Source: Bacteroidia bacterium (GTDB taxonomy: Bacteria; Bacteroidota; Bacteroidia; Bacteroidales; Azobacteroidaceae). From it: 59,093 nucleotides of DNA. A program made the translations under genes and the position numbers. The DNA is taken from positions 1 through 59,093 of the forward strand of contig BNXY01000012.1 in NCBI GenBank assembly GCA_025999935.1, in the 5' to 3' direction. Below are positions 29,129-52,325 of this stretch, one piece after another. The notes below the pieces were generated by a model. The model did not search any database. It saw only the letters and a program-made list of their open reading frames with translations, and had not been told where the DNA came from. Position 1 is the first letter of the stretch. The number at the start of each line of letters is the position of its first letter.

Positions 29129-29140
29129 TATATATATATT

Positions 29141-33164: not shown

Positions 33165-33195
33165 GATAATCATTTTCATAAATTCGTAATTGCTA

Positions 33196-35641: not shown

Positions 35642-35700
35642 CATTAAACAAAAAACAATCTTTTTACCTTAATTTATATCGGTTAATTAAATGAAAATTG

Positions 35701-36477
35701 TCAAGGAACGTGAATTTTTTCTATGGTTGAAAAATTATCCGCACCCATACCCGGATAGTTTGTTTCCGGTTTTCCGGCTGCCGTTTGGCAGTTCATGGAA
35801 ACACGAATCCAATAGTCTATACCTGTATATTTAAGCGGGATTGCCGTGCGGAAATTGAGTTCCTTACCTTCCATGTCGTTTGTCAGTTTTAAACTAACGG
35901 GATACAAATCAAGCCACCGGGCGCTTGTATTGACCGACCTTGAAACCAATAGCCAAGATTCTTTTGTGTCCGGCATCTCATATCCCGCTTTCTGATTTCG
36001 TTTGAAGCGAACGGAACATTCAATATAGGAACCGGAAGCTTCTGAAACTACAACCGGTTTTTTAATCCACTCTATTGTAAGATATGGAGTTACCGTAAAA
36101 TCTTTGGTAGCTGTACCTTTTATCTCAACCAATTCGCCGGCATCATCACCGTCTTTCAATGCATCATCGTAAGGATAAAAAGCGCCGGCTCGGGGCAACA
36201 TGCGGTATGTTCCCGAAAACCATTTGGTATGGCGGTAAGTTCCGTCTTGCTGAACCTTCAGTGTTTGATTTCCGATGTAGGATGTGCTGTCTTTCGCCCA
36301 GCTTAATTCCCGCATACGAATAATCTCCGAGCCGTGATTGACTTGAAGCGGCTGACCCAAATGGTCGTAAACTGTTCCCTGAATTGTAGCATCAGGTCCA
36401 TCATAATTATCTATTTCACAAGATACTACGAAAAGTGAACAAAACAATAGAATAATATAATTAATTAACTTTTTCAT
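35701..36477 (-). CDS. DUF3823 surface lipoprotein (SusE position)
   Basis: 258 residues; lipoprotein signal MKKLINYIILLFCSLFVVSC followed by EIDNYDGPDATIQGTVYDHLGQPLQ, the characteristic start of DUF3823. An N-terminal CarboxypepD-like beta domain and a second Ig-like domain follow. It occupies the place of SusE/SusF directly after SusD (12-bp gap), so it is expected to sit on the cell surface and help bind the glycan, although direct binding is inferred. Confidence 0.85.
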   Translation of the reverse strand: MKKLINYIILLFCSLFVVSCEIDNYDGPDATIQGTVYDHLGQPLQVNHGSEIIRMRELSWAKDSTSYIGNQTLKVQQDGTYRHTKWFSGTYRMLPRAGAFYPYDDALKDGDDAGELVEIKGTATKDFTVTPYLTIEWIKKPVVVSEASGSYIECSVRFKRNQKAGYEMPDTKESWLLVSRSVNTSARWLDLYPVSLKLTNDMEGKELNFRTAIPLKYTGIDYWIRVSMNCQTAAGKPETNYPGMGADNFSTIEKIHVP

Positions 36478-36489
36478 ACGGATTCATTT

Positions 36490-38601
36490 TTATTGATTTC
36501 TGTTTTTCTGCAATAAAGGATTGTTTTTCAACTCATCACCCGGTATTCCTTCATAATAATTGTTGATGGAGAAAGTAATGCGGTCGCTGCCGGATTCAAG
36601 GTTTTTAGCGTCGTAGAGATATTTCCCGTCGGGAATACCCGAAGCGTCAACGGTTGCATCCTTGCTGAACATAAATGAATACAATCCTCTTTTACGATAC
36701 TGATTGATTTGCGTGTCGTAAGTGAACCAACGCAGCAAATCCCAATAGATTTTGCTCTCAAATGCGAGTTCCTTGTAGCGTTCTACCCGAAGAATCTGTA
36801 AGCCGCGGTTGGGCGCTTCCACAAATCCGCCTTGTCCTTTCGGACCGGGTTTGGTCCATTGGGTATAAGCGGGATCTGTTGACAATTCGGCGGGAGAGGC
36901 AAGCAATGTTGCTCCGGCGCGGTCGCGAATATCATTAATACAAGTATAAGCGTCCTGAAGCATATTTACGCTGTTATAGGTCGATTCGCCGCTTTGAGCA
37001 AGTTCAATAGCCGCTTCGGCTCGGTTCAACAGAATTTCAGCGTAGCGGATTTCAATCCAAGGTTGGGTTGATTCGTATAAGTTTGTTTGTCCTTGCGTCA
37101 TCGCGAGATTCATGTGCTTGCGTCCGTGAAATCCGGTCAAAGTATTGTTACCACCATTGTTCGACATTTTGGGACCATCCAGCCCGTTTTTGAAAATTTT
37201 TAAGCCGTTCACATCGTATGTATCATTTTGTGTGCGGGGATCGGCAGTAGAATTAAGGATTATGCCATCTCTGAATAGGTATTGTTCAATCACTTTTGCA
37301 TTACCTTCTGTTGCGCGATAATTACTGCCGTCGGCTCCGTCGTCGATGCTGAATTTTTTGAACTTGCGTGTTGCAGGATCAATATCTTTGTTGAAGATAC
37401 CTGCCCGCAAATCTACTTTGAATCCGCCTTTAACAACTTGTCCGGGAAGAAGCAAGTTCGCCCTGAGTCTGGGTTCTGCGCCGTCCCAAAGTTGATGACC
37501 ATTGTCGTAAACGTTGTAGTAACCTTCTGAATCAAAAGCGCTGAAATGGCCATCGGCATCAAGCGGCAGTCCGTCGAACAGTTCTACCCAATCTAATGTA
37601 GGATTAAAACGGTCGCCATAGGTAGTAGTCATACGGGGCGGCGCCATGATAGCGTCGTAGGAATGCGTTTGCATTGTATAATCGAACTGGCGCAACCAGA
37701 TGGATTCTTTGTTAGATGTTACCTTTTCCCATATTTCGGCGTAATTAGCCATTTTATCAGTATTTCCGCGATGGAGTTGGTAAACTCCTTCCAGTAATTT
37801 AGCGGCATCCCAAGCCTGTTTAAAGTACTCGTTGGCGAGGCTTGAAGGAATACCTTCGAGCAGTACTCCATCTACTTCCCAATCCTGAAATTTCAGAGAG
37901 CCGTAACGGGCTGTAGTCGCTGCATGAAGGGCGGCACGGCTTTTCAAGGCTGCGGCAACGTATTTGTTGGCACGCCCCGTTTCGCTTGTTGCGGACATTC
38001 CTGCAATTGCTTCGTCCAAATCTTTCAGGATAAAATTGTAAGTATCGGCATGACTGCTGCGAGCCATATACAGAGAACTTGCATCATTTATATCCGGCGG
38101 CAATTCCTGTGCAGTTTCAAGAAGCGGCAAACCGCCATAACGCTTTGCCAACTGGAAATAAACATAAGCGCGGATAAATTTTGCTTCTGCAATCCAACCT
38201 TTCGCCTGATCGGCAAGTTCAGGATACTTTGGTAAATCGGCCATCAGGGTATTTACTTGACGTATCATTTTGAATCCGTCTTTCCAGTATCCTGTTCTAT
38301 GGCGCTGTAAGCCGACATTGTTTCTGTTCAGCATTTCGCCGGTGGAGTTCCAGAACGTATTTATCATAATTGCGCTGAAATATCCGCCATCGGAGCCACT
38401 CACGTCGTTACGTCCATTGTCGTAGCGGAAATCTTCCATTGGAAGATGGTTGTATATTCCCGCAAAATAAGCTTTTATACCATTTTCATTGTATATGTCG
38501 GTAGGTGTGATAACCGTTTTTGGAATAATATCCAAATCTACGCATGACACAAACCATGACATTGAAAACAATACTGTTAAAATAAAATATATTTTTTTCA
38601 T
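36490..38601 (-). CDS. SusD/RagB family glycan-binding lipoprotein
   Basis: Surface lipoprotein that forms the lid of the SusC transporter and captures oligosaccharide. Lipobox in MKKIYFILTVLFSMSWFVSC. N-terminal SusD region (LDIIPKTVITPTDIYNENGIKAYFAGIYNHLP), TPR helices (IRQVNTLMADLP, WIAEAKFIRAYVYFQLAKRYGGLPL), and the C-terminal RagB region (WIEIRYAEILLNRAEAAIELAQSG, RGLQILRVERYKELAFESKIYWDLLRW). At 703 residues it is longer than most family members (about 500-600), with the extra length in the loops of the middle part. 33 bp after SusC. Confidence 0.95.
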   Translation of the reverse strand: MKKIYFILTVLFSMSWFVSCVDLDIIPKTVITPTDIYNENGIKAYFAGIYNHLPMEDFRYDNGRNDVSGSDGGYFSAIMINTFWNSTGEMLNRNNVGLQRHRTGYWKDGFKMIRQVNTLMADLPKYPELADQAKGWIAEAKFIRAYVYFQLAKRYGGLPLLETAQELPPDINDASSLYMARSSHADTYNFILKDLDEAIAGMSATSETGRANKYVAAALKSRAALHAATTARYGSLKFQDWEVDGVLLEGIPSSLANEYFKQAWDAAKLLEGVYQLHRGNTDKMANYAEIWEKVTSNKESIWLRQFDYTMQTHSYDAIMAPPRMTTTYGDRFNPTLDWVELFDGLPLDADGHFSAFDSEGYYNVYDNGHQLWDGAEPRLRANLLLPGQVVKGGFKVDLRAGIFNKDIDPATRKFKKFSIDDGADGSNYRATEGNAKVIEQYLFRDGIILNSTADPRTQNDTYDVNGLKIFKNGLDGPKMSNNGGNNTLTGFHGRKHMNLAMTQGQTNLYESTQPWIEIRYAEILLNRAEAAIELAQSGESTYNSVNMLQDAYTCINDIRDRAGATLLASPAELSTDPAYTQWTKPGPKGQGGFVEAPNRGLQILRVERYKELAFESKIYWDLLRWFTYDTQINQYRKRGLYSFMFSKDATVDASGIPDGKYLYDAKNLESGSDRITFSINNYYEGIPGDELKNNPLLQKNRNQ

Positions 38602-38634
38602 ACTTTTGTATTTTTATTTATTCAACAATTAAAA

Positions 38635-41600
38635 TCAGAATGAAAGAGAGCCGCCAAAGTTAATCGTACGGTTCAATGGATACATATATCCGCTTGATTC
38701 GGTCGGCTTTTCGGGATCAACTCCCCTTACCTTTGTAAAGGTTACCAAATTGTAAGCGTTAATAAAAAGCCTCATATCTTTAATTCCACTTTTGGAAAAC
38801 AGAATGTTTTTAGGCACTGCGAAACCAAGTTCTACTGTTTTAAGCCTTAGATAAGTTCCGTTTTGAATGTTAAATTTGGAATCAATGTCCGCTCTTGTTT
38901 TTCCATAAGGATAATAACCTGAAACCCATTGATTTGAAGGGTTGTAAGGATCTTTATCCGGATCAACAGGATGCCAACGGTCGAACAAAAGTTCGAGGGC
39001 GTTTCCGTCCCAAGCCAAGGGTTCGAGCAACTGTTCACCGTATGAAATATAGGACATAGCCGATCCTTGAAACAAAGCGCTAAAATCAAACGATTTCCAC
39101 TGAGCGGCCAAATTCAATCCCAAGTTCATTAAAGGATAGTTGCGTTTTCCTGTGAAACCCTCATTCGGATTGGTAGTAGTAGCAATGGGGTGTTTGTCTC
39201 TGTCGTCAATCACACCGTCGCCGTTCCAGTCTTCGTAAATCGGGTCTCCGGGAAGGGTTCCGGTATTGGAGTAAATCGAATTGGCTATATCTTCGTAAGA
39301 TTGGTATTGACCTGCAGAACCGTAACCGAACCAAATATCATTGTAGCGGTTTAACACGTTATTTCTCCAGTAATCATACGAGTTTGAACGATCAGGTTGA
39401 AGAATTTTTGTTCTCAAAGTCCTTGTCATCGACACAAAACCTGTAACTTTATACAGAAAATCTTTATTTACACGGTTTGTGTGCCTCAGTTCAACTTCAA
39501 AGCCTTTTGCTCGCTCGGCATTGAAGTTTATTTGAGAAATTCCGGTTCCCAGTGTTGCAGGAAATATGACTGAGGGTGCAGTAGCTATATTTTCGCGATC
39601 GCGTTGGAAGAAATCAAGCGAGAAACCCGCAAGTCCGTTCCATAAATCCGCTTCAAGTCCAAGATTTTTCATTTCATGACTTTCCCAAGTAAGATACATA
39701 TAGGGAGCATTACGGAATCCGAGTCCGTTTACGAAAGTGCTACCGAATACATAACCCCTTGCTATGCTGTTTCGATTACCGCTTGCAGGATAATCGTAGC
39801 CTTCATAAAATTGACCGGATGATACGCCGCCTTCGTTTGCAGTTCGTCCCCAGCTCGCTTTTAATTTAAGATTGTTGACGAAAGATACATTGTCTTTAAT
39901 GAAAGATTCTTCCGATAATCTGTAAGCCAGCAACACGCTTGGGAAAAGCGCCCATTTATGACCTTTTGGAAACGTGGATGAACCGTCGTAACGAAATGCA
40001 AATTCAGCCATATATTTGCCGAGATAATCGTAATTCAACCTGCCTACAATTCCTGCGTTTGCAGTTTCATTCAATCCGCTGCCGTTTCCTTCCATACCTT
40101 CGGTGTTACCCGCTTGCAGATAAGGAATCGGAATATCGAAATAGCGGAAAGCGTTGAAATTATATCCTTGATTGTAACGTTCTTCGTACAGCAGCATTGC
40201 ACCAACGTTATGGGTGTCAAGAAATGTACGGTTATAATTCAACGAAAAGTTCATCAAGGTTGTGTAACTTGTGTTGTAAGTGCGCCTCAGGCTTGTCTTT
40301 CCGTTTCGTAAATAAGTTTGGTAGGTGTCGTTGGAAGCCACGTAACGATATTCATTATATTCTTTCTTGAAATCCGAATTATCGTCGAAAGTCTTGTCGT
40401 AACTGTACATGAATTTAGCAGACAGACCTTTGAGAAATGGTGCATCATACTGTAGATACATGTTCGACTGGAAAATATTCTTCTTGTTATTGACAAAACC
40501 CGACAGTTCCGGATGAATGGCAGCAACCGGATTGTATTCATTATCCGGATGATAATAATACGGAGCCGTATCGTTTGCATAAAGCGGGTCGGTTGGACGC
40601 GAACGCCACATAATATTGAAAATACCTGTCGTAGCCACATTCTGTCGTTCGGTTTCATCCGAAATCAAATTTAGTTTTACGCCTCCTTTCAGGTCTTTTG
40701 TTATATTGACGTTTAAGTTTGTCCGGAGATTGTAACGATGATAGTTTGCGGAGTTTGTGCGAAAGAAACTTCCTTGGTCGTTATAACCGAGATTGACATA
40801 ATAGTCAATTTTTTCAGAACCGCCGCTTATCGAAACATTGTGCTGTTGTTGAGGAGCCGTTTTTCTCATGACTTCGGCATACCAGTCGGTATCGGGCATC
40901 TCGCCTTTTCTCAGCGCTTCGAAATAAGCGTCATCGTAGGTTTTTACAGGTGCGGTCGTATTCCGCATGGTCGTTTCGTTATACAGCAAAGCGCGGTCGT
41001 ATGCTCCAATCGGTTGCAATATTTCGGCAGGAGTTTGGATACCGTAATACATTGAATATTCAATTTTAGTTTTTCCCTTTGTCCCGCTTTTTGTAGTAAC
41101 GAGGACAACTCCATTTGAGCCGTTAAAACCGTAAACAGATGTTGACGCATCTTTAAGAATAGAAACACTTTCAATGTCGTTAGGGTCCATTCTCGCTAAA
41201 TCACCGCGAGGAACTCCATCCACAACGAGAAGCGGGCTTCCTAAGCCGCGAATGTCGAATTGGTTACTGAAATTCCCCGGTTCCGAAGTTTTTTCAATCA
41301 CGCGCAAACCCGGAAGTTTTCCGGTCATCATGTTTTGAACATTCGTGTTCTTCGTCGTTAACAACTGTTCGCTGTTTACCTGCGCTACCGAACCGGTCAG
41401 TGTTGTTTTCTTCTGTGCACCATAACCGACAACGACTATTTCGCCCAAGTTGGTTAGGTCTTCTTCCAAAACGAATTGGAAATTTGTTTCATTTCCAATT
41501 GTCTTCTTTTGTCCGACAAAACCGATGTACGAAACCGCTACGGTTGCATTCGCAGATAAATTAGCCGGCAGGCTCAATGAAAATTTTCCGTCAACGTCGG

Positions 41601-41826
41601 TGGATGTACCCAGATTTGTACCGGATATGCTTACAGAAGCGCCAATTACCGGTTCACCGTTTTTTTCGGAAACAATTCCTCTAATGTTTTTGGTTGTCTG
41701 AGCATTTATCAGGATAGATGTTGAGCAGATTAGCAAAAACAATAGCGTTCGCATTAACATTTTTTTTCTCAAAAAGAAAATTACATGTTTCTTTTTGTGT
41801 TTTTCTAAATAGTCCTTCATAAACAT
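38635..41826 (-). CDS. SusC/RagA family TonB-dependent outer-membrane transporter
   Basis: 1063 residues; imports oligosaccharides across the outer membrane with energy from TonB. The signal peptide is at about 25-42 (MRTLLFLLICSTSILINA); the basic N-terminal extension MFMKDYLEKHKKK may be part of a long signal, with alternative ATGs at 41820 and 41754. CarboxypepD-like domain (IRGIVSEKNGEPVIGASVSI), TonB-box area (EIVVVGYGAQKKTTLTGSV), plug (PLLVVDGVPR, NDIESVSILKDASTSVYG) and a 22-strand barrel ending NRTINFGGSLSF. First gene of the seven-gene operon, preceded by the repeat-bearing promoter at 41857-41926. Confidence 0.95.
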   Translation of the reverse strand: MFMKDYLEKHKKKHVIFFLRKKMLMRTLLFLLICSTSILINAQTTKNIRGIVSEKNGEPVIGASVSISGTNLGTSTDVDGKFSLSLPANLSANATVAVSYIGFVGQKKTIGNETNFQFVLEEDLTNLGEIVVVGYGAQKKTTLTGSVAQVNSEQLLTTKNTNVQNMMTGKLPGLRVIEKTSEPGNFSNQFDIRGLGSPLLVVDGVPRGDLARMDPNDIESVSILKDASTSVYGFNGSNGVVLVTTKSGTKGKTKIEYSMYYGIQTPAEILQPIGAYDRALLYNETTMRNTTAPVKTYDDAYFEALRKGEMPDTDWYAEVMRKTAPQQQHNVSISGGSEKIDYYVNLGYNDQGSFFRTNSANYHRYNLRTNLNVNITKDLKGGVKLNLISDETERQNVATTGIFNIMWRSRPTDPLYANDTAPYYYHPDNEYNPVAAIHPELSGFVNNKKNIFQSNMYLQYDAPFLKGLSAKFMYSYDKTFDDNSDFKKEYNEYRYVASNDTYQTYLRNGKTSLRRTYNTSYTTLMNFSLNYNRTFLDTHNVGAMLLYEERYNQGYNFNAFRYFDIPIPYLQAGNTEGMEGNGSGLNETANAGIVGRLNYDYLGKYMAEFAFRYDGSSTFPKGHKWALFPSVLLAYRLSEESFIKDNVSFVNNLKLKASWGRTANEGGVSSGQFYEGYDYPASGNRNSIARGYVFGSTFVNGLGFRNAPYMYLTWESHEMKNLGLEADLWNGLAGFSLDFFQRDRENIATAPSVIFPATLGTGISQINFNAERAKGFEVELRHTNRVNKDFLYKVTGFVSMTRTLRTKILQPDRSNSYDYWRNNVLNRYNDIWFGYGSAGQYQSYEDIANSIYSNTGTLPGDPIYEDWNGDGVIDDRDKHPIATTTNPNEGFTGKRNYPLMNLGLNLAAQWKSFDFSALFQGSAMSYISYGEQLLEPLAWDGNALELLFDRWHPVDPDKDPYNPSNQWVSGYYPYGKTRADIDSKFNIQNGTYLRLKTVELGFAVPKNILFSKSGIKDMRLFINAYNLVTFTKVRGVDPEKPTESSGYMYPLNRTINFGGSLSF

Positions 41827-41856: not shown

Positions 41857-41926
41857 CAAAGTTAGCGGTTTGCATTTAATGGATTTGTTAATGTAAGGAT
41901 TAATGTTTTGATTAGTGGGGATTAAT
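41857..41926 (-). promoter_or_regulatory. SusC operon promoter with tandem ATTAA repeats
   Basis: Read on the minus strand, ATTAAT, ACTAAT, ATTAAT, ATTAAC and ATTAAA start at 41926, 41916, 41904, 41892 and 41880, i.e. spaced 10, 12, 12 and 12 bp. The -7 element TAACTTTG starts at 41864, exactly 16 nt after the last repeat start. No -33 TTTG is present; the repeats take its place. This direct-repeat layout, one per helical turn next to the promoter, is how SARP-type activators bind in actinobacteria. The same layout is at 44877-44924. Confidence 0.65.
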
Positions 41927-42008
41927 TTATTAGGAAAATTTAAAATTCGGGTTAAATAATTATAATTTCTAAGCGCGAAAAATGACAAGTTTATGATATA
42001 TACCCATT

Positions 42009-44561
42009 TCACGAAATAATCTCTTCAAAAGAATACTTAAATTTCGTCCCCAAAGAATAGGCGTATTTCTTTATAAAAGAAAGGTAAATGGATTTGGCGA
42101 GTCCGTTTTTTCTCATTTTTACCAAGGTGGAACATTTCAGTTTCAGTGCATCCTCATTCAATGTATCATGAATTAAAATAGCATCAGCCAGATTGACACG
42201 TTCCTGCAAGGACAAATCAAGATCTTTTTGTGCGTTTATATCTAAGAACAGGTCTATCAAGTCATTCGCAAAATCGGCTTTGAAAGTGTCCGACCATTCC
42301 AATTGAACATTGGGCAATAATTCTCCGACGGAAACGATGTTAATCAATTTCAAGACATCTTCTTTGGTTCTGTTTACCTTTTGTTTCATCTGTCGTATCA
42401 AAATCAACGCTTCGTAATAATCGCAATAAACATCATTGCCGAATTTGACAACCCAATAAGAATTTTGGCTCTCAATATGTATAGTGCCGATTTGTTCAAA
42501 AATCTGGCGGAGTTTACTCAGCATAACACCCCGGTTGTTGCGCGCGCGCTCCTGACTTTTGTCAAACCACAGGGTTTCTTTCAGTTTGGTTGACGAGATT
42601 CCCTTGCTGTCTTCTTTCAAAGTCGTTAATAAAATAATCAGAAAAAGATGTTTCTGCAATGGAGAAAATTCGGCGGTAATGTCCGTTCCATTTTTATCAT
42701 TTACTCGGAATCCGCCAAATAGAAAGATCGTCTGCGTTTTATCTTTTTTAGCAATCGGTTTGATTGTTTCTTTTTCTTCCTCTGTTTCAGTATTTTCGAC
42801 AGGAGGAATATTGATTTTCTTTTTCTCCCTGAAAATAAAGTATCCGGCGATAAGGCTGATGATGGTGGCTGCAAAGCTGTAAATCATCCATGAATTATCT
42901 TTTTCCGTATCCGACATTAGATATATTTCCGTTTCGGCCAAAGGTGGATACGACAACGAATAAATGGATATTGTCGCCATGGAATCCGTTGTTTCCGATG
43001 CGTAAGTAATAGCGGATAATTCATGGGTCTTTTTGTTCAGGAATAAATCGGCGTAAGAAGATATGTCGCGGAAATCATACGGAATACTTGTCAGCATTTC
43101 ATATTCAGGTTTTTCCAGGGAAAACTTACCGAGGGAAAGTGAGGTATGATATATTTGCTGAGGAAAACATAAGGCATAGAAACATTTATTCAACGTATCG
43201 ACTATCATTGAGTTAGCTACTGCAAAATGATTTTTCTGCGGTCCGAGTTCCCATATCTTTTTTGCTGTCATACTTCGAAGGTCTATCTCAAACAAATCGT
43301 AGTAGTTGTGCGGAGAAAACTCCTGTTGACCGGTTTCGCTTCCGTAACCGCCGAAAAGGAGTATCCGGTTTTCGTCCACCTTGCCCAAACCGCTCAAATA
43401 ACGCGGCTGAATCTGATCGCCTGTGTATTGCATTTTTTCCCAGATTTGAGTTCGGAACGAATATTTGTTGATATAGTTTTTGTATTTGTGATGTCCGTAT
43501 CCTCCAAACAAATAAAGAGAACTGTCATATTCGGATACAAGTTTATTATGATGCCAGAATTCGACTTCTTTTTCTTTTGTTGCCTTGTTTTTCCAGCTTT
43601 TTCCGGTTGCATCGTAAGCCGCGACATCCTTTCCGTTTTCCACATCAAAGCAATAGGAATAATAGTTTTTATCCAAAGGATTGTAAACGATTTGATTCGC
43701 AAAATCGCTATGCGGGATACCGGAAGATATTTTGTTTTTAATTAAAGTATGTGTTTGTGTATTATAGACATAAAAGTTTTTTATATCGGAAATTGCAATG
43801 CCGTTTTCATCGGGATTATAGGCGACTTGAGGATTTTTATAGGCATTGAAACTGATTCGTTTTTTCCATATAGCGTGGTCGTCCAGCAGCCATTTGGGAT
43901 TTTCGGCTGTTGCCAAATGTTTTTCCATTTCGTCGTAAACGCCATCCGCAGTATGTTTGGAAAGTTTCCAATAGTACAGCGGTTCTCCTTTAATATTGTT
44001 AATGCGGATATCTTTGACGATGATTTTCGGGACATCACTGGTCTGCAATTGTGAATAATTGCACCTTCCGAAAATAATGTTTACTTTTTCGAAATCTTTG
44101 ATATAAGCAATTGTCGGTGAAAATTTCTTTTCACCGACGGAAATATCTACACGGTTATTTTTTATATCGAGCAAAATCGAAAAAGGGAAAAAGGAGGGAT
44201 AAATTCCGTCGATTTCTTCCAAAGCACAATCGGCCAATACTTTACCGGAAGAGTTGACTACGGTTAGTTTATACAAAGTAAATAAAAAATCAATATGTTG
44301 GTCGTTTTGCCCAATTATCCGGAAAACATATCCGAAATTATACTCCGGTACAGACTGGTAACAAATATCGAAGGACAAAGCAAACCCATCGGGAAATGAA
44401 AATGCTTTTGAAGGGGAAAGATTAAAACTTGTCCGTTTTTCCTGCACAACTTCAAATGAACTGAACTCAAGGCCGTACCTTAAATCCTGGGCAACAAGGA
44501 AATGTAATGAGCAGAAGCAGAACATGCTCATGAGTATTGTATTTTTCAATGACTTTTTCAA
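42009..44561 (-). CDS. Transmembrane SARP-type regulator with periplasmic Kelch/LamG-like sensor
   Basis: 850 residues from a TTG start at 44561 (n-region KKSLKN plus hydrophobic core gives a good signal peptide); an ATG at 44531 is the alternative. Periplasmic part: a LamG-like beta-sandwich (about 30-215), then Kelch-type propeller blades (LYLFGGYGHHKYKNYINKYS, ILLFGGYGSETG). One membrane helix (557-577, MIYSFAATIISLIAGYFIF), an acidic linker, then a cytoplasmic winged helix of SARP type (612-712: IFLFGGFRVNDKNG, SSTKLKETLWFDKS, NNRGVMLSKLRQIFEQ) and a BTAD-like helical domain (to 850). It lies between the SusC operon and the divergent GH38 operon, so it is the likely direct sensor-activator of both. 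It is neither a hybrid two-component protein nor an ECF/anti-sigma pair. Confidence 0.82.
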   Translation of the reverse strand: MKKSLKNTILMSMFCFCSLHFLVAQDLRYGLEFSSFEVVQEKRTSFNLSPSKAFSFPDGFALSFDICYQSVPEYNFGYVFRIIGQNDQHIDFLFTLYKLTVVNSSGKVLADCALEEIDGIYPSFFPFSILLDIKNNRVDISVGEKKFSPTIAYIKDFEKVNIIFGRCNYSQLQTSDVPKIIVKDIRINNIKGEPLYYWKLSKHTADGVYDEMEKHLATAENPKWLLDDHAIWKKRISFNAYKNPQVAYNPDENGIAISDIKNFYVYNTQTHTLIKNKISSGIPHSDFANQIVYNPLDKNYYSYCFDVENGKDVAAYDATGKSWKNKATKEKEVEFWHHNKLVSEYDSSLYLFGGYGHHKYKNYINKYSFRTQIWEKMQYTGDQIQPRYLSGLGKVDENRILLFGGYGSETGQQEFSPHNYYDLFEIDLRSMTAKKIWELGPQKNHFAVANSMIVDTLNKCFYALCFPQQIYHTSLSLGKFSLEKPEYEMLTSIPYDFRDISSYADLFLNKKTHELSAITYASETTDSMATISIYSLSYPPLAETEIYLMSDTEKDNSWMIYSFAATIISLIAGYFIFREKKKINIPPVENTETEEEKETIKPIAKKDKTQTIFLFGGFRVNDKNGTDITAEFSPLQKHLFLIILLTTLKEDSKGISSTKLKETLWFDKSQERARNNRGVMLSKLRQIFEQIGTIHIESQNSYWVVKFGNDVYCDYYEALILIRQMKQKVNRTKEDVLKLINIVSVGELLPNVQLEWSDTFKADFANDLIDLFLDINAQKDLDLSLQERVNLADAILIHDTLNEDALKLKCSTLVKMRKNGLAKSIYLSFIKKYAYSLGTKFKYSFEEIIS

Positions 44562-44953
44562 AGTTGCAAAAAATTAAAATAAAATAATGCAAATATACAT
44601 ATTAATTTCGATTAGTTTTACAGAAAAATTATTCTTTGAGGAAATCTGGATTTTTACCTCACTTGTCCGGCGGGATTTTTTGTCTATTTCAAAATATCTT
44701 CGAACGAAAGATTAATATTCATCCATGAACTTCATTCGATAGATCATTTGCTTCTTTCCACTTTTCTTCGGCACAGTAATCTCTGATCTTTTTCAAATTC
44801 TCTGCACCATTAACAAATGGATTAATAATTGGCGTATAAATAAAAATATTGGAATTTTTTTTAAATAAATACCCATATTAAGTGTTTTATTAACTCATAT
44901 ATTAAGTGCTATATGGGAACTTTGCAAAAAAAACAAACTAAAAAAAACATACA
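44562..44953. other. Intergenic region between regulator and GH38 operon
   Basis: AT-rich, no gene seen. The regulator-proximal side has CAACTTTG (44561-44568, minus strand), a possible -7 box overlapping the TTG start. The GH38-proximal side holds the repeat-bearing promoter at 44877-44924. Confidence 0.5.
44877..44924 (+). promoter_or_regulatory. GH38 operon promoter with tandem ATTAA repeats
   Basis: ATTAAG, ATTAAC and ATTAAG start at 44877, 44889 and 44901 (12-bp steps). The -7-like GAACTTTG starts at 44917, 16 nt after the last repeat, the same spacing as in the SusC promoter. The first and third repeats share the longer word ATATTAAGTG. The -7 box departs from TAnnTTTG in its first base, consistent with dependence on an activator. 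The ATG is about 29 nt further. Confidence 0.65.
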
Positions 44954-47900
44954 ATGAAAAAGACATGGATTGGGTTACTGTTGGTTTTGTGTTATGCTCC
45001 TTTATTATTAGGACAAACGCAACATAAAGCGTACATGGTATCGAATGCCCATTTCGATACACAATGGTTGTGGACAGTGCAGACATCCATTGACGACTAT
45101 CTCTACAAAACAATGGTTCAGAATTTCTGGTTGATGGATAAATATCCCGACTATATATTCAACTTTGAAGGAGGAGTCAAATACAGTTGGATGAAAGAAT
45201 ATTATCCCGAAGAATACAAACGCTTGAAGCAATATGTTAAATCGGGACAATGGAATATTGCAGGAAGTACATGGGATGCTACCGATCCGAATATGCCTTC
45301 TCCTGAATCATTTTTTCGCAATATTCTTTTGGGACAAGAGTTTTTCAAGAAAGAATTTGGCATAAAATCAAATGATATTTTTCTTCCCGACTGTTTTGGC
45401 TTTGGCTATACATTGCCGACCATTGCGGCGCATGCAGGCTTAATTGGATTTTCTACCCAAAAATTACAATGGCGGAAATTTCCATTCTATGGAAAAGAAA
45501 AAATTCCATTCCTGATTGGGCTTTGGGAAGGACTTGACGGATCAAGAATATTGAGTGTGCCCCATGCGCAAAGCTATGTTTCCAAATATGAATACAAAGA
45601 CATCAGTAGGGATGAAGAATTGATAAAATTAACAGAAAAAGACCCCAATCATGTCGTTTATCACTATTATGGTGTTGGTGACAGAGGCGGTTCTCCAACA
45701 ATTCCATCCGTGGCTTCTATAGAAAAAGGTATTCATGGCAGCGGCCCCGTAAAGATAATCAGCGCTCGATCCGGGCAATTGTACGACGATTTTTATCCGT
45801 TTGACAAACACCCCGAATTACCTCTGTTTAAAGGAGAATTATTGATGGATGTACATGCTACGGGTTGTTATACCTCTCAAGCAGCTATGAAATTGTTCAA
45901 CCGGAGAAACGAGCAATTGGCCGATGCTGCAGAAAGAGCTTCCGTTGTGGCAGAATTATTCGGCGGCATCAACTATCCTGCGGAAGAATTACGAAGCGCC
46001 TGGCAACGATTCCTTTGGCATCAATTTCATGATGATATGACAGGAACCAGTATTCCGGACGTGTATAAATTTTCATGGAATGATGAATTAATCAGTCAAA
46101 CAAAGTTTGCCGAAACCATCACTATGGCTGTGGGTGCGGTAAGCCGCACATTGGATACCCGTGTTAGCGGAACTCCGGTAATTGTTTACAATCCGATTGC
46201 TCAAAGCAGAAAAGACATGGTAACAGCTACCATTGATTTGGATAAAACAGTACAGAATGTAACCGTTACCGGCCCAAATGGAAAGCAAATACCCTCGCAG
46301 ATTGTGGCAAGGAAAGACGGGAAAGCGAGTATTGCATTTCCGGTGGCTTCAGCGGCGGTTAGTTTTTCGGTGTACAATATAAAAACGGGAGGAAGTACAT
46401 TGAAAAGCGACCTTAAAGTATCTGCCAATTCCCTTGAAAACAAAGTATATAAACTGAGTTTGGATAAAAATGGAGATATTGCCTCCATCATAGACAAACG
46501 AGAAAATAAGGAATTGGTAAAAAAGGGCAACGCCTTTCGTTTGGCGCTCTTTACCAAAAATGAATCGTTGAGTTGGCCTGCTTGGGAGATATTTAAAGAA
46601 ACATTGGATGCAGAACCGATTGCTATTACCGACAATGTAAAAATCACTATTGCAGAACAAGGTCCCGTAAGAGCTACCTTAAAAATAGCGCGAATACATG
46701 GTCAATCCACCTTTATTCAATACATCAGTTTGACCAATGGCGCCGCCGACGATCGCATCGACATTACCAATGAGATTGATTGGAATGAAGCCAATTCCCT
46801 ACTTAAAGCAGAGTTCCCAATGAATGTGGCAAATGAAAAAGCCACGTATGATTTAGGGATCGGATATATTGAACGGGGAAACAACACGCAAACGGCTTAC
46901 GAAATATATGCACAGCAATGGGCGGATATTACCGACACGGATAAAAGTTATGGTGTTGCCGTAATGAATGATTGCAAATACGGCTGGGATAAACCGGACG
47001 ACAATACATTGCGTTTAACGCTGCTTCACACCCCGAAAGTAGGAAAAGACCCTAATATGACTCATCAAGATCATTTGGACTGGGGTCATCATACCATACG
47101 TTATGCCATTGTCGGTCACAAATCAATCGCTACAGACGGTCGAGTTGCAGGGAAAACGGAGGCTTTCAACCAACCTCTTCTTTCTTTTACGACAACCAAA
47201 CACAAAGGAAGTAATGGGCGGGAATATTCGTTCGTGAAGACGAACGCCCCGCAGATTGTTGTAAAAGCCATCAAAAAAGCAGAGTCCGGCGATGGTTATG
47301 TTATTCGCGTAAATGAAATATCGGGAAACAATTTGCCAAAAGCCACGATTACTTTTGCCGCTCCCATTGAATATGCCCAAGAGTTGAACGGAATAGAAGA
47401 GCCGGTTGGAGATATACAATATGCAGGAAATACAATTACGTTTGATGCCAAAGGTTTTCAGCCACGAACATTTAAGGTTAAGTTCAAAGAAGGAAATGCA
47501 AGCATCCATACGCCTCAAAACCAACCGGTTGATATAACCCATAATGCTACGGCTGTTACGACAGACGCTTTCAGACGTTCGGGTAATTTTGACGGCGCCG
47601 GAAATTCTTTTGCCGCCGAATTACTTCCGGAACTTGTTGTTTCCGATGGAATAGCATTTCAATTAAAAAATAAACCCGATGAATATAACTACGTCCGTTG
47701 CGAAGGACAAACAATTACACTCCCGAACCATAAAGGGGCAACTAAACTATACTTGCTTGTCACTTCTTCGAAAGAAGACAGAGAAACAACATTCATTATT
47801 GATGGGAAACAGCAAACATTTCTGATTCCTTACTATTCCGGATTTTATGGACAATGGGGATGGAAAGGGGAAAGTGAAGGATATATAAAAGAAGGTTCTA

Positions 47901-48127
47901 TCGCTCACTTAGGTACGCACCGTCATAGCGAAAAGGCAGGAAATGAATCGTATATCTATACTTACTTGTATAAAATAGGGATAGATATAGACTCAAATGC
48001 ACAAACGTTTACACTTCCTAATGACAAGAATATCGCATTGTTTGCAGCCACGCTGACGGATAATCCGAATGAAATCCGGTCGGCAATGGAGATGAGAGCA
48101 CTTCCGTACAAAACAGTTTCGAAATAA
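44954..48127 (+). CDS. GH38 family alpha-mannosidase
   Basis: 1057 residues, signal peptide MKKTWIGLLLVLCYAPLLLG. Retaining, zinc-dependent exo-alpha-mannosidase. N-terminal catalytic domain: YMVSNAHFDTQWLWTVQ (metal His/Asp), FNFEGGVKYSWMKEYYPE, NIAGSTWDATDPNMPS, nucleophile in DIFLPDCFGFGYTLPTIAAHAG, and WHQFHDDMTGTSIPDVY. The three-helix and large beta-sandwich domains follow (WAGDEDG-type site not seen), and the C-terminus carries an extra jelly-roll-like region (about 870-1050). First gene of the four-gene operon. GH38 in addition to two GH92 modules indicates an alpha-mannose-rich target. Confidence 0.93.
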   Translation: MKKTWIGLLLVLCYAPLLLGQTQHKAYMVSNAHFDTQWLWTVQTSIDDYLYKTMVQNFWLMDKYPDYIFNFEGGVKYSWMKEYYPEEYKRLKQYVKSGQWNIAGSTWDATDPNMPSPESFFRNILLGQEFFKKEFGIKSNDIFLPDCFGFGYTLPTIAAHAGLIGFSTQKLQWRKFPFYGKEKIPFLIGLWEGLDGSRILSVPHAQSYVSKYEYKDISRDEELIKLTEKDPNHVVYHYYGVGDRGGSPTIPSVASIEKGIHGSGPVKIISARSGQLYDDFYPFDKHPELPLFKGELLMDVHATGCYTSQAAMKLFNRRNEQLADAAERASVVAELFGGINYPAEELRSAWQRFLWHQFHDDMTGTSIPDVYKFSWNDELISQTKFAETITMAVGAVSRTLDTRVSGTPVIVYNPIAQSRKDMVTATIDLDKTVQNVTVTGPNGKQIPSQIVARKDGKASIAFPVASAAVSFSVYNIKTGGSTLKSDLKVSANSLENKVYKLSLDKNGDIASIIDKRENKELVKKGNAFRLALFTKNESLSWPAWEIFKETLDAEPIAITDNVKITIAEQGPVRATLKIARIHGQSTFIQYISLTNGAADDRIDITNEIDWNEANSLLKAEFPMNVANEKATYDLGIGYIERGNNTQTAYEIYAQQWADITDTDKSYGVAVMNDCKYGWDKPDDNTLRLTLLHTPKVGKDPNMTHQDHLDWGHHTIRYAIVGHKSIATDGRVAGKTEAFNQPLLSFTTTKHKGSNGREYSFVKTNAPQIVVKAIKKAESGDGYVIRVNEISGNNLPKATITFAAPIEYAQELNGIEEPVGDIQYAGNTITFDAKGFQPRTFKVKFKEGNASIHTPQNQPVDITHNATAVTTDAFRRSGNFDGAGNSFAAELLPELVVSDGIAFQLKNKPDEYNYVRCEGQTITLPNHKGATKLYLLVTSSKEDRETTFIIDGKQQTFLIPYYSGFYGQWGWKGESEGYIKEGSIAHLGTHRHSEKAGNESYIYTYLYKIGIDIDSNAQTFTLPNDKNIALFAATLTDNPNEIRSAMEMRALPYKTVSK

Positions 48128-48163
48128 TAAAATCTATCAAAAATATTTAAAATAATATAGACC

Positions 48164-51076
48164 ATGAAAAAAGTAAAATTTTTAGTCATCCGTTGTTGTC
48201 TCTTTCTGAACTTCAACAAAAGAATTACAATAGCCGCTCTATTATTGGTGTTAGTGCAAGGCGCTATCTTTGCCCAAAAGAAAGGGGTAACATCTGTGTC
48301 GGCATCCGTCAATGCCAATCAAGGGGCGCTATTGCTCGATAACAACAGCCAAACGGCTTGGGAGCTTAAAAGCAAAGATTTGCAAAACAACCAATTTCTG
48401 ATGTTTACATTACAGAAACCGGGCGATGTAAAGGAAATTCAATTAGAAGCAAATGGTATTTCAAAGGAAGAAATACAAAAAGCAATAAGCCTGTTCATCA
48501 CTTACGACCCGATGAATTTGGGCGAAGCCGTAAAATACAACATTCAAGGAAATCAAAAATTTTCCTTGACTTTTCCACCTAAGTACGGCGCTCATGTGCA
48601 AATTACGATCAAGGGTAATACGCTGAAAAAACCGTTTGCCATTACTGAAATAGCTTTCGTTTATGTTGAAAATGCCGCGAAGAAACAAGCATCGGAAACG
48701 GCACAACTTTGGATGAATGCAACACTTCCTGTTGAAGAACGGGTTGAATTGCTCTTGACCGCTATGACTCCTTCCGACAAAATGGAATTGATTCGCGAAG
48801 GTTGGGGTATTCCCGGTATTCCTCATTTAGGTGTTCCTGATATTAAAAAAGTGGAAGCGGTACACGGATTTTCTTATGGAAGCGGTGCGACCATTTTTCC
48901 ACAAGCTATCGCAATGGGCGCTACATGGAACAAGAAATTGACAGAAAATGTAGCAAAGACTATCGGAGATGAAACCCTTAGTGCAGGCGCTATTCAGGCA
49001 TGGTCGCCGGTATTGGATGTAGCGCAAGACGCCCGTTGGGGACGTTGCGAAGAAACTTTTGGCGAAGACCCCATTTTGATATCCCAAATTGGAGGCGCTT
49101 GGATTAAAGGCTATCAGTCGCTTGGATTAATGACAACACCCAAGCATTTTGCCATTCACGGAGCGCCTTTGGGCGGACGCGATTCACACGATATTGGTTT
49201 GTCTGAACGAGAAATACGCGAAGTGCATTTGGTTCCCTTCCGGCATGTAATTCGGGAATATAATTGTCAATCCATCATGATGGCGTATTCCGATTTCTTA
49301 GGGGTGCCGATTGCTAAAAGCCCAGAACTTTTAAAAGGTATTCTCCGTGAAGAATGGGGATTCAATGGATTTATCGTTAGCGACTGTGGCGCTATTGGAA
49401 ATCTTACTGCCCGCAAACATTATACGGCGGTTGATTATATAGATGCCGCCAATCAAGCATTAGCAGCAGGTATTGCAACCAATTGCGGGGATGTGTATAA
49501 CAACAAGGAAGTCATCGCAGCCGCCAACAGAGGCGAACTTGATATGGAAAATCTGGACAATGTATGCCGCACCATGCTAAGCACGATGTTCAGAAAAGGT
49601 CTTTTTGAAAACAATCCGTCTAAATCATTGGATTGGAATAAAATATATCCTGGATGGCAATCTCCGGAACATAAAGAAATGGCGCGTGAATCAGCTCGCC
49701 AGTCTATCGTTTTATTGAAAAACAAAGCAGACATTTTACCTTTATCCAAAACCGTAAAAACCATAGCTGTCATCGGACCGGGAGCGGATGATTTACAACT
49801 CGGCGATTATACTCCCAAAATTCAAGAAGGACAATTAAAATCGGTATTAACCGGAATCAAAGCAGCCGTCAGCAAGAGTACACAAGTGATTTATGAAAAA
49901 GGATGCGAGTTTACCAATAAAAAGAACTTTGATATAGAAAAAGCCAAGACGGCAGCTCTCAAATCGGATGTAGTAGTGATGGTATTAGGCGATTGCACAG
50001 CCGCCAATCAAAACAACGGCAACTATAACACTTCCGGCGAAAACCATGATTATGCCACTTTGGAACTTCCGGGAAATCAACAAGCATTGTTGGAAGCTGT
50101 TTGCCAAACAGGCAAGCCGGTGGTATTGATTTTACAAGTCGGTCGTCCTTACAATGTTTCTTATGCTGCCGAAAATTGCCAAGCTATTTTAGTCAACTGG
50201 TTTCCCGGACAAGAAGGCGGATATGCCACGGCAGATGTTCTTTTCGGCGATTATAATCCCGCCGGACGTTTGCCGATGACTTTTCCACGACATGTAGGTC
50301 AAGTTCCTAATTATTACAACTTCAAAACTTCCGGACGGCGATATGAATATTCAGATATGGAATATTATCCCTTGTATCCTTTCGGTTACGGTTTAAGCTA
50401 TACAAAGTTCAAGTATGCCAACCTGCAAACTCGTGTCAATGCAGACGGAACGATTTCCGTACATGCCGAAGTAAGCAATACGGGAAACAAAGCCGGCGAC
50501 GAAGTGGTTCAGTTGTATGTTACTGATATGTATGCCAGCACTAAAACCCGTGTAATGGAATTGAAAGATTTTGAACGTATTACATTGGCTCCGGGCGAAA
50601 CAAAGAAAGTAAACTTCACACTAACTCCTTACCAGCTATCCTTATTAAACGATCAAATGGATCGGGTAGTTGAACCGGGAGATTTTAAGATCAATGTAGG
50701 AGGTAAAAGTCCTTCTTACCGTGCAGGCGACCGAATCAAAGACAGCGTTACTTACGGTTCCGAATTGGAAGGTGTAACAGGAACCGTGGACTATTCGAAG
50801 GCTTATGCCTCCGATTTTACATTGACCTATTCCGGAATCGAAGAAAATCTGGTTTACAACAAGAAACGTGCAGTAGTCAAGGTAAAAAATATAGGAAACA
50901 TAATGGATACAGGAAAAACCCAACTGTTTGTCAATGGAGTGCAAACGAATGAAGTACATCATTACGAACTAAACTCCGGAGAAGAAAAAACAATTACCTT
51001 CGACTTAGACAAAAATGAAAAAATCAATGAGTTAACGTTTACCATTAAATATAAAAGTATAACAATAAAACTATAA
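48164..51076 (+). CDS. GH3 family beta-glycosidase with N- and C-terminal extensions
   Basis: 970 residues. The signal region is long (MKKVKFLVIRCCLFLNFNKR then ITIAALLLVLVQGAIFA). An N-terminal F5/8-type-C-like sandwich (about 40-165, LLLDNNSQTAWELKSKDLQNNQFLMFTL) precedes the GH3 barrel (PVLDVAQDARWGRCEETFGEDP, TTPKHFAIHGAPLGGRDSH) with the nucleophile in GFIVSDCGAIGN. The alpha/beta sandwich (SIVLLKNKADILPL) and fibronectin-III-like domain follow, and a further 130-residue beta domain (KAYASDFTLTYSGIEENLVYNKKRAVVKVKN) closes the protein. Probably beta-glucosidase or beta-xylosidase; not decidable here. Second gene of its operon, 36 bp after GH38. Confidence 0.92.
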   Translation: MKKVKFLVIRCCLFLNFNKRITIAALLLVLVQGAIFAQKKGVTSVSASVNANQGALLLDNNSQTAWELKSKDLQNNQFLMFTLQKPGDVKEIQLEANGISKEEIQKAISLFITYDPMNLGEAVKYNIQGNQKFSLTFPPKYGAHVQITIKGNTLKKPFAITEIAFVYVENAAKKQASETAQLWMNATLPVEERVELLLTAMTPSDKMELIREGWGIPGIPHLGVPDIKKVEAVHGFSYGSGATIFPQAIAMGATWNKKLTENVAKTIGDETLSAGAIQAWSPVLDVAQDARWGRCEETFGEDPILISQIGGAWIKGYQSLGLMTTPKHFAIHGAPLGGRDSHDIGLSEREIREVHLVPFRHVIREYNCQSIMMAYSDFLGVPIAKSPELLKGILREEWGFNGFIVSDCGAIGNLTARKHYTAVDYIDAANQALAAGIATNCGDVYNNKEVIAAANRGELDMENLDNVCRTMLSTMFRKGLFENNPSKSLDWNKIYPGWQSPEHKEMARESARQSIVLLKNKADILPLSKTVKTIAVIGPGADDLQLGDYTPKIQEGQLKSVLTGIKAAVSKSTQVIYEKGCEFTNKKNFDIEKAKTAALKSDVVVMVLGDCTAANQNNGNYNTSGENHDYATLELPGNQQALLEAVCQTGKPVVLILQVGRPYNVSYAAENCQAILVNWFPGQEGGYATADVLFGDYNPAGRLPMTFPRHVGQVPNYYNFKTSGRRYEYSDMEYYPLYPFGYGLSYTKFKYANLQTRVNADGTISVHAEVSNTGNKAGDEVVQLYVTDMYASTKTRVMELKDFERITLAPGETKKVNFTLTPYQLSLLNDQMDRVVEPGDFKINVGGKSPSYRAGDRIKDSVTYGSELEGVTGTVDYSKAYASDFTLTYSGIEENLVYNKKRAVVKVKNIGNIMDTGKTQLFVNGVQTNEVHHYELNSGEEKTITFDLDKNEKINELTFTIKYKSITIKL

Positions 51077-51080
51077 TATC

Positions 51081-52322
51081 ATGAAAACATTTGGATTTTT
51101 AGCGCTCTTAGTAATAAGTTGCTTTTCAATTCATCCGGCTATGGGAGCGGGTCAATTGACGGCTGGGACAGCCAAAATAAACATTACGCCTCCCGAACCT
51201 AAATATTCGGTTCACGATTCCCTGTATGCACGTGCGCTCATTTTGGATGCTGGTGGTTCTCGCATTGCCTTTGTGGCGTTGGATTTAGGCGGTTACACGA
51301 ATATTTCCTTACTTGAAAAACTGAAAAGTCGATTTAATCTGAAAGAAGCGTATTTCTGTCCACAACACACACATTCTTCGGAAACAGCTCCTCGCGAATG
51401 GCTGGAAGGACAGATTCTGTCCGTTATGGAAACGGCTTCAAAAAATATGTTTGAAGCTCGTGTTTCGGGAGGTCATCGTTATTTTCCCCAATTGAGTTTT
51501 AACCGCTTGATTCTTCGCGACGACGGACGGGCGCGTGAATCATGGGAAGGCGACGAGCATTACCGCGCTGTTAATCCGGAACGTATTCCTCATGGCCCGG
51601 TAGATAATGCGGTGGGTGTTATCAAGTTGGAAGATACAAGCGGAAAGCCCAGAGTGCTGATTATGAACTACGCCTGCCATCCCGACGTAGCTTGGAATAA
51701 CTTTGAAATTTCCGGCGATTATGTCGGTTACGCTACAAAATATACTGAAGAAGCTTTTGGCAATACCGTCAATTGCCTGTTTGTGCAAGGCGGCGGAGGT
51801 AATCAGGCGCCTCTGTTTAAAGACGGAGGCCGCACCGGTCCCAACGACCCGCGTCCTTCCAATTACGATTTGATTGACCGCATGGGAAAATTACTTTCCA
51901 TAGAAACGGTAAAATTGGCAAAGGAATTGTATCCCAATCCTAATGATGTGCCGAATATTAAGCTGAAAGCAGACTCGTTGCATTTCACGGGAAGATACGA
52001 TAAAAAACTGCAATATAATGTTCATTTCTCGGTAATTTCCATCAACGACAGGTATGTGGTTGCAACAGTTCCGGGCGAACCGTTTATCAAGTTTCAGATT
52101 GACTGGAAACGAGAAATGCAAGCCTACGCCGTACCGTTCTTTTTCGGATATACATGGAATGGAGGCAAATGGCCCATTTATCTTCCTGATATCCGGTCGG
52201 CGGCTTACGGCGGATATGGTGCCGACCACGGTCCGGATCTGATAGAAGTGGGTGCCGGCGAACGGATTATGGCAAAATTACTGGAAACTTATTACCGGAT
52301 GAACGGTATATTTAAACAATAA
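51081..52322 (+). CDS. Neutral/alkaline ceramidase-family secreted protein
   Basis: 413 residues, signal peptide MKTFGFLALLVISCFSIHPAMG. The mature start LTAGTAKINITPPEP and the blocks IAFVALDLGGY, YFCPQHTHSSETAPREW, MNYACHPDVAWNNFEISGDYVGYATKYTEEAFG and VQGGGGNQAPLF match the N-terminal catalytic domain of the neutral ceramidase family, including the HTHS metal site and the later His. It lacks the C-terminal Ig-like domain of true ceramidases. Such short forms are common in Bacteroidota carbohydrate loci and are probably hydrolases of an amide or ester on the glycan; the real substrate is unknown. 4 bp after GH3 and 4 bp before GH2. Confidence 0.8.
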   Translation: MKTFGFLALLVISCFSIHPAMGAGQLTAGTAKINITPPEPKYSVHDSLYARALILDAGGSRIAFVALDLGGYTNISLLEKLKSRFNLKEAYFCPQHTHSSETAPREWLEGQILSVMETASKNMFEARVSGGHRYFPQLSFNRLILRDDGRARESWEGDEHYRAVNPERIPHGPVDNAVGVIKLEDTSGKPRVLIMNYACHPDVAWNNFEISGDYVGYATKYTEEAFGNTVNCLFVQGGGGNQAPLFKDGGRTGPNDPRPSNYDLIDRMGKLLSIETVKLAKELYPNPNDVPNIKLKADSLHFTGRYDKKLQYNVHFSVISINDRYVVATVPGEPFIKFQIDWKREMQAYAVPFFFGYTWNGGKWPIYLPDIRSAAYGGYGADHGPDLIEVGAGERIMAKLLETYYRMNGIFKQ

Positions 52323-52325
52323 AAC

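What the first reader, a model, noticed from the sequence alone, without database searches (positions are those of the whole stretch)
41857..44924. Same ATTAA repeat array at fixed 16-nt distance from the -7 box in both promoters flanking the regulator
SusC promoter: five units with starts 10, 12, 12 and 12 bp apart. GH38 promoter: three units 12 and 12 bp apart. In both, the last unit starts 16 nt before the -7 element and the -33 element is missing. Helical-phase direct repeats replacing the upstream promoter element are the known binding pattern of SARP activators. The regulator gene lies between the two. The third operon (GH105) and the regulator's own promoter lack the array.
Basis: partly seen in the sequence, partly recalled or inferred. 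Interest (0 to 1): 0.85.

Follow-up and report, generated by a model that had tools for sequence, protein, structure and literature searches.

The report
Membrane SARP regulator and its operator arrays
Promoters of sugar-harvesting genes in a Bacteroidota bacterium carry evenly spaced short repeats that very probably are docking sites of a membrane sensor whose DNA-binding end resembles the Streptomyces activator AfsR, and related bacteria in several branches of the phylum show the same layout.

Summary
Both promoters flanking the regulator carry ATTAA units 12 bp apart, the last one starting 16 nt before the -7 box, with no -33 box; shuffled windows almost never show this. The genome has more: one beside the regulator's paralogue, ahead of a rhamnogalacturonase-like gene, others ahead of GH92, GH99-like and transglutaminase-like genes. 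In 45 genomes of the family, 18 have strict arrays; all 18 encode the regulator, and none of 23 genomes without it has one. Beside 80 related regulators, 20 loci have an array at exactly 16 nt and period 11/12; other distances give 0-3, reversed sequence 0. The period follows the regulator's phylogeny. The cytoplasmic domain folds like AfsR and EmbR. Best reading: Kelch sensor, membrane helix and SARP-type activator in one protein, binding these arrays and probably replacing the -33 contact. Limits: no binding data; 54 of 80 loci show no array within 750 nt; at order level the link to the regulator is weak, and similar 11-bp TTAA arrays occur in genomes lacking it, some ahead of PhoB-like genes.

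The parts
41857..41926 (-). Array in the SusC promoter: five units (ATTAA at 41926-41922, ACTAA at 41916-41912, ATTAA at 41904-41900, 41892-41888 and 41880-41876, read on the minus strand) and the -7 box TAACTTTG (41864-41857)
   Evidence: Read directly. Whole-genome pattern hit with 0 mismatches. In L026 (regulator 94% identical) the same 10-12-12-12-16 layout: unit bases 24 of 25 identical, spacers 23 of 37.
44877..44924 (+). Array in the GH38 promoter: three ATTAA units (44877, 44889, 44901) and the -7 box GAACTTTG (44917-44924)
   Evidence: Read directly; whole-genome pattern hits with 0 mismatches.
42009..44561 (-). Regulator, 850 aa: signal peptide-like N-terminus, periplasmic beta domain, Kelch propeller (Pfam 261-442, strands to about 540), one transmembrane helix (about 557-577), cytoplasmic SARP-type winged helix and helical BTAD-like domain (about 610-850). 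Topology inferred from sequence and model.
   Evidence: Pfam Kelch; models; Foldseek and VIA matches to AfsR and EmbR; 620 homologues at E 1e-10 among the candidates scored, several named 'two-component SAPR family response regulator' by JGI.
24935..41826 (-). Run of genes behind the SusC array: SusC (38635-41826), SusD (36490-38601), DUF3823 protein (35701-36477), GH92 (33196-35469), sialate O-acetylesterase-like (31716-33266), GH3 (29141-31693), GH92 plus alginate lyase-like (24935-29128). That they form one operon is inferred from order and strand.
   Evidence: ATG 30 nt after the -7 box.
44954..55523 (+). Run of genes behind the GH38 array: GH38 alpha-mannosidase (44954-48127), GH3 (48164-51076), weak ceramidase-like match below cut-off (51081-52322), GH2 (52326-55523). 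One operon is inferred.
   Evidence: ATG 29 nt after the -7 box.

Best explanation
The ATTAA arrays are the operators of the regulator encoded between them: a one-protein membrane sensor with a periplasmic Kelch/beta domain, one transmembrane helix and a cytoplasmic SARP-type (AfsR-like) DNA-binding domain. Several SARP domains sit side by side, one per unit. The two nearest units lie where the -33 element would be, so the regulator probably takes over the role of that element and holds sigma region 4, as AfsR does in Streptomyces. When the periplasmic domain senses its ligand (perhaps alpha-mannoside-rich oligosaccharides, judged from the target genes), the SusC/SusD-GH92 genes, the GH38 genes and distant sites in the genome are switched on. 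Shown by computation: array, fixed distance, absence of the -33 box, SARP fold, association with the regulator, period following the regulator's phylogeny. Inferred: binding, activation, sigma contact, ligand, and the effect of unit number.
For: Arrays real and non-random. Own genome: an array 36-82 nt beyond the last matched codon of the one paralogue found (C31) and arrays ahead of GH92, GH99-like and transglutaminase-like genes. Family: 63 strict sites in 18 of 45 genomes, reversed-pattern control 0 in all 45; regulator in 22 of 45; all 18 array genomes have it, 0 of 23 without it have a strict array, Fisher p 4e-9 ignoring relatedness. At least 14 of those 23 encode GH92 (E 2e-13 or better), so arrays follow the regulator rather than GH92. 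With the looser nAnnTTTG box and period 12, the 24 zero-mismatch sites fall in 11 genomes, all with the regulator (my count). In 80 regulator loci the grid peaks at period 12, distance 16 (6 hits, other cells 0-2), and for three units at 11/16 and 12/16; 20 of 80 loci at d=16 against 0-3 at other distances and 0 reversed; 26 of 36 sites lie within 1 kb of the regulator, in 11% of the bases. Two order-level genomes (G176, G280) have a strict array 173 and 192 nt beyond the regulator domain. Period tracks regulator phylogeny: 3 changes against 7.2 in shuffles. TTG in the -33 region: 4 of 84 array sites against 42 of 149 other promoters. SARP fold. AfsR binds 11-bp direct repeats overlapping -35, with sigma region 4 on top of the protomers (PMC10936776, passages). 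Of 63 family arrays, at least 11 directly precede a GH92 gene.
Against: No binding, footprint or expression data. Pfam finds neither BTAD nor Trans_reg_C in the window's own domain; only 16 and 14 of 78 relatives match, weakly. 54 of 80 regulator loci show no array within 750 nt by any criterion used (some have short flanks; L026, L031, L034 and L074 have one 0.8-3.6 kb away), and promoters of the 50 loci without any show no lag-11/12 excess. At order level the association is weak: arrays in 5 of 15 regulator genomes (own genome left out) against 37 of 279 others, p 0.047. 4 of 22 regulator genomes in the family lack a strict array. One regulator-less family genome (G018) has a good-looking 12-bp array with one mismatch; with one mismatch allowed, sites appear in 27 of 45 genomes and the backward control also fires often. 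GH92 genes are near only 18 of 80 regulators and GH38 near none, so the alpha-mannoside ligand does not hold for the family at large. 12 bp is not AfsR's 11.
Confidence: 0.82

Rival explanations
1. The arrays are bound by an OmpR/PhoB-type response regulator (a Pho-box-like operator), not by the membrane regulator beside them.
Against: In the family, strict arrays are absent from all 23 genomes without the regulator. Arrays lie next to the regulator gene in diverse lineages. Beside the 80 regulators the genes behind arrays are SusC-like in 16 of 36 cases and GH92-like in 4 of 36 (my count). The window's period is 12, and period follows the regulator's phylogeny. Whether the 23 genomes encode PhoB was not tested.
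Confidence: 0.08
2. The arrays are intrinsic AT-rich or curved upstream DNA that helps RNA polymerase directly, with no dedicated protein.
For: Units are AT-rich and spaced near a helical turn; the two intergenic regions are 25-26% G+C.
Against: Dinucleotide shuffles and reversed sequence do not reproduce them; between the window and L026 units are kept (24 of 25) better than spacers (23 of 37); in the family presence goes with the regulator.
Confidence: 0.03
3. The regulator binds the arrays but represses the genes by blocking the promoter until ligand releases it.
For: The array covers the -33 region, where a bound protein could also block polymerase.
Against: These promoters lack a -33 element (4 of 84 with TTG against 42 of 149), so they would be weak without help, and the distance to the -7 box is fixed, as in activators that touch polymerase.
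Confidence: 0.07

Closest known systems
AfsR and other Streptomyces antibiotic regulatory proteins (SARPs); EmbR of Mycobacterium
   Same: Winged helix plus helical BTAD fold over 231-236 residues; for AfsR, a direct-repeat operator overlapping the upstream promoter element in a promoter with a poor one (PMC10936776, passages).
   Different: Here the domain hangs on a transmembrane helix and a periplasmic Kelch sensor; three to five units instead of two; 12-bp period in this clade, 11 in others; promoters are of the Bacteroidota -7 type; targets are glycan-use genes.
SusR-like regulators of Bacteroides
   Same: One membrane protein with periplasmic sensor and cytoplasmic DNA-binding part controlling susCD-type genes (PMC3878776, passages).
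   Different: [quoted passage not shown] here a SARP fold and short-period arrays. Sequence relation to SusR was not tested.
Hybrid two-component systems (HTCS)
   Same: Membrane glycan sensors that control PULs, including alpha-mannan PULs (PMC3878776, passages).
   Different: HTCS carry kinase, receiver and AraC domains; no such Pfam match here.
Pho box / PhoB-type operators
   Same: TTAA direct repeats, 11-bp period, same distance to TAnnTTTG in other genomes of the order. That these are Pho boxes is inferred.
   Different: Other target genes; found in genomes without the Kelch-SARP regulator; 11-bp rather than 12-bp period in the cases looked at.

Membership tests
SARP (AfsR/EmbR type) activators | Winged-helix DNA-binding domain followed by a helical BTAD domain | tested here: met
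   [not shown]
SARP (AfsR/EmbR type) activators | Recognisable by sequence profile (Pfam BTAD, Trans_reg_C) | tested here: inconclusive
   Window domain: no match at E 1; relatives 16 of 78 BTAD (best 3.5e-4) and 14 of 78 Trans_reg_C (best 3.1e-4). Profile search of PDB sequences up to E 5: none.
SARP (AfsR/EmbR type) activators | Direct-repeat operator in place of the -35/-33 element, at fixed distance from the -10/-7 element | tested here: met
   Distance 16 peak and missing -33 box; period 12 rather than 11 in this clade. That the arrays are this protein's operator is inferred from association.
SARP (AfsR/EmbR type) activators | Purified domain binds the repeats and activates transcription | not testable with these tools
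   No bench data.
SARP (AfsR/EmbR type) activators | Located in antibiotic biosynthesis clusters (typical, not strictly defining) | tested here: not met
   Window neighbours are SusC/SusD and glycoside hydrolases; SusC-like genes in 49 of 80 related loci.
Hybrid two-component systems | Histidine kinase, receiver and AraC domains in one protein | tested here: not met
   No such Pfam match in the 850-aa protein at E 0.01.
OmpR/PhoB response regulators | N-terminal receiver domain | tested here: not met
   No Response_reg match in the regulator at E 0.01.
SusR-like regulators | Sequence homology to SusR | not tested
   No SusR sequence was compared.

The most novel reading that the evidence does not exclude
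Bacteroidota have a further class of glycan-locus regulators beside SusR, HTCS and ECF sigma systems: a membrane-bound one-protein sensor with a SARP activator domain, reading a simple operator code (ATTAA units, 11- or 12-bp period, 16 nt from the -7 box) that lets regulons be read from sequence. The period changed between 11 and 12 bp together with the protein in one large clade, so the protomer-protomer interface co-evolved with DNA spacing, and one recurring target class is alpha-mannoside (N-glycan or mannan) degradation.
Probability: 0.65. Interest if true: 0.72.

Novelty: new variant of a known kind. Interest (0 to 1): 0.62.

Why it matters
PUL regulators in Bacteroidota are commonly grouped as SusR-like, HTCS or ECF sigma systems (PMC3878776, passages). 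A membrane SARP with a readable operator would add a class, would give a sequence code for predicting its regulons, and would carry the AfsR activation mechanism into a phylum with a different promoter type. Two natural repeat periods, 11 and 12 bp, offer a ready test of how side-by-side activators tolerate a change of DNA spacing.

Tried and rejected
Literature: ten searches listed no paper that by title or abstract start deals with a Kelch-SARP regulator or these arrays; the library holds open-licence PMC papers only and the listed papers were not all opened. PMC10936776, PMC3878776, PMC3547664 and PMC12596196 were seen as passages only. The Bacteroides PhoB paper gave no Pho-box sequence under the terms searched, so the Pho-box reading of the 11-bp arrays is inferred.

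Order-level co-occurrence was expected to repeat the family result but was weak (p 0.047); I put this down to 11-bp TTAA arrays of another regulator and to divergent operators, without proof. A profile search of PDB sequences with the C-terminal alignment gave nothing. The full-length model was poor at 577-713, so the domain was modelled alone. Fifty loci without arrays were tested by autocorrelation for other periodic motifs: no lag stood out; that call's group of 30 loci with arrays was chosen by arrays and is circular.

Rows dropped or set by hand: in the period tree (quick method, SH-aLRT only) sequence extraction failed for the loci of G009, G030 and G032, and G035 (mixed 11/12) was not labelled, so two (G007, G026) of six single-regulator array genomes entered; the labels of L032, L042, L047, L051, L053 and L059 were set by eye; L052's minus-strand site was left out; arrays 1 kb or more away were not used. 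L071, L100 and L102 were left out of the domain alignment A2. skip flanks shorter than 100 and 200 nt, so L030's array is missed; 79 of 80 loci have at least 300 nt on a side, 64 have at least 500 nt on both. The 84 sites include loci fetched by a pattern with fixed distance, which biases the d=16 count; the counts free of this are those on the 80 loci. Searches (31 sites; 36 sites in the same loci) differ in the least score allowed per unit. The GH92 list used was typed from the printed, cut-off part, so 11 of 63 is a lower bound. Seven genes for one search were picked by eye as Pho-like.

Full report
What is there. The SusC promoter (minus strand, 41926-41857) has units ATTAA, ACTAA, ATTAA, ATTAA, ATTAA with starts 10, 12, 12 and 12 apart and the last unit 16 nt before TAACTTTG. 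The GH38 promoter (44877-44924) has three ATTAA units 12 and 12 apart and 16 nt before GAACTTTG. The two-unit core occurs twice in the window and on average 0.003 times in 300 shuffled windows; promoter-only shuffles give it in 3 and 2 of 20,000. The flexible window scan found no array ahead of the regulator or of the GH88/GH105-type gene at 20101.

The neighbourhood. The regulator (42009-44561, minus) lies between SusC/SusD/GH92/GH3 genes on one side and GH38/GH3/GH2 genes on the other. GH92 and GH38 are alpha-mannosidase families (established knowledge), so the locus looks made for alpha-mannoside-rich glycans.

Own genome (80.8% complete, 318 contigs). One paralogue was found, on contig C31, 59% identical. 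The two-unit pattern with no mismatch occurs five times in 3.16 Mb: the two window sites, one just beyond the paralogue and ahead of a rhamnogalacturonase-like gene, one ahead of a GH99-like gene on C46, and one ahead of a transglutaminase-like gene on C59; with one mismatch allowed there are 13 sites against 3 for the pattern read backwards. A sixth array, found with the 11/12 pattern, precedes a GH92 gene on C31. A further three-unit site on C106 was not examined.

Family test. In 45 genomes of the family the strict three-unit pattern (TTAA, period 11 or 12, last TTAA 15 nt before TAnnTTTG) has 63 sites in 18 genomes; the same pattern read backwards has none in any of the 45. The regulator domain is in 22 of the 45. 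All 18 array genomes are among the 22; none of the 23 others has a strict site (Fisher p 4e-9, ignoring relatedness). At least 14 of those 23 have GH92 genes, so the arrays follow the regulator. At least 11 of the 63 arrays stand directly ahead of a GH92 gene. Against: 4 regulator genomes have no strict array. With a looser -7 box, period 12 and one mismatch allowed, sites appear in 27 of 45 genomes and the backward control fires often too; the 24 zero-mismatch sites are in 11 genomes, all with the regulator, but one regulator-less genome, G018, has a good-looking one-mismatch array.

Phylum test. 80 loci with relatives of the regulator were kept from 172 found in genome contigs, from Dysgonamonadaceae to Fulvivirga and Polaribacter. 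A grid over period and distance with two units peaks at 12 and 16 with 6 hits, other cells 0-2; with three units it peaks at 11/16 (5) and 12/16 (6), other cells 0-3, reversed control at most 1. A flexible scan finds 31 sites against 1-6 in five shuffles and 3 reversed. Within 750 nt of the regulator, 20 of 80 loci reach 14 of 15 (RYTAA) at distance 16, against 0-3 at every other distance from 11 to 22 and 0 reversed; periods 8-10 and 13-15 give 0. The ATTAA score gives 20 of 80 against 0 reversed, 3 at wrong distances and 1 at wrong periods. Together 26 of 80 loci have an array within 750 nt and 54 do not; in 50 loci without any there is no excess of lag 11 or 12. Of 36 sites in these loci, 16 are followed by a SusC-like gene, 4 by a GH92-like gene and one, in L075, by the regulator itself (my count). 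GH92 genes are near 18 of 80 regulators and GH38 near none, so the ligand probably varies within the family.

Period and protein. On a 31-row tree of the C-terminal domain, period 11 against 12 needs 3 changes, against a mean of 7.2 for shuffled labels (0 or 1 of 500 shuffles as low); twenty 12-bp rows, the window's among them, form one group with SH-aLRT 99. Outside it, two Dysgonomonas rows and one Prolixibacteraceae row also have 12. The closest relative with an array (L026, regulator 94% identical) keeps the 10-12-12-12-16 layout, with 24 of 25 unit bases but 23 of 37 spacer bases identical.

The -33 box. TTG in the -33 region occurs in 4 of 84 array sites and in 42 of 149 other intergenic TAnnTTTG sites ahead of ORFs. 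TTTG in the other promoters is commonest 22-24 nt upstream, as expected for -33; among the 84 arrays one has it there.

How it probably works. In AfsR, two protomers sit side by side on 11-bp repeats overlapping -35, and sigma region 4 rests on them instead of on DNA (PMC10936776, passages). If the Bacteroidota -7 box is centred on -7, the last two units here start near -27 and -39, close to AfsR's -29 and -40; this is inference, no start site being mapped. The regulator would be switched by a periplasmic ligand and would pull its cytoplasmic domains onto the array from the membrane.

Rivals. The strongest is a PhoB-type factor: in the order, 37 of 279 genomes without the regulator also have strict arrays, against 15 of 295 genomes for the reversed pattern (my count from the table), and of seven downstream genes picked by eye two are response regulators and one a phosphoesterase. 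The order-level association with the regulator is therefore weak (5 of 15 against 37 of 279, p 0.047), though in two of the five (G176, G280) the array lies 173 and 192 nt beyond the regulator domain. For the window, adjacency, family co-occurrence, 12-bp period and target genes favour the membrane regulator.

Verdict. Observation confirmed, interpretation supported and extended. New variant of a known kind: SARP-type activation in a membrane-bound glycan sensor of Bacteroidota.

Noticed in passing
L185 1570-2277, L186 1570-2256, L172, L173, L183, L193 (order-level loci): TTAA arrays with 11-bp period at the same distance from TAnnTTTG precede OmpR/PhoB-type response regulators, a calcineurin-like phosphoesterase and short CarbopepD_reg proteins in genomes without the Kelch-SARP regulator; they may be the Bacteroidota Pho box.
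   Followed up: partly
L019 (G000:C59) 4529-2523, minus: An array-bearing gene with a transglutaminase-core match and a sub-cut-off F5/8 match lies in the presumed regulon; a PNGase-like role in N-glycan release is possible, from recall only.
   Followed up: no
window 6267, minus: A weak array-like site (13 of 15 unit bases; 16, 13, 12) is followed only by a 64-aa ORF; it looks like chance.
   Followed up: partly
window 24935-29128, minus: One 1397-aa protein joins a GH92 alpha-mannosidase, an alginate lyase-like domain and a right-handed beta helix.
   Followed up: no
G018:C23:4241-4287, minus: A regulator-less family genome (97% complete, 7% contaminated) has a good-looking 12-bp array with a one-mismatch -7 box.
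   Followed up: no
L075 7045, plus: In this locus an array (16, 12, 11) stands ahead of the regulator gene itself, which hints at self-regulation there, unlike in the window.
   Followed up: no
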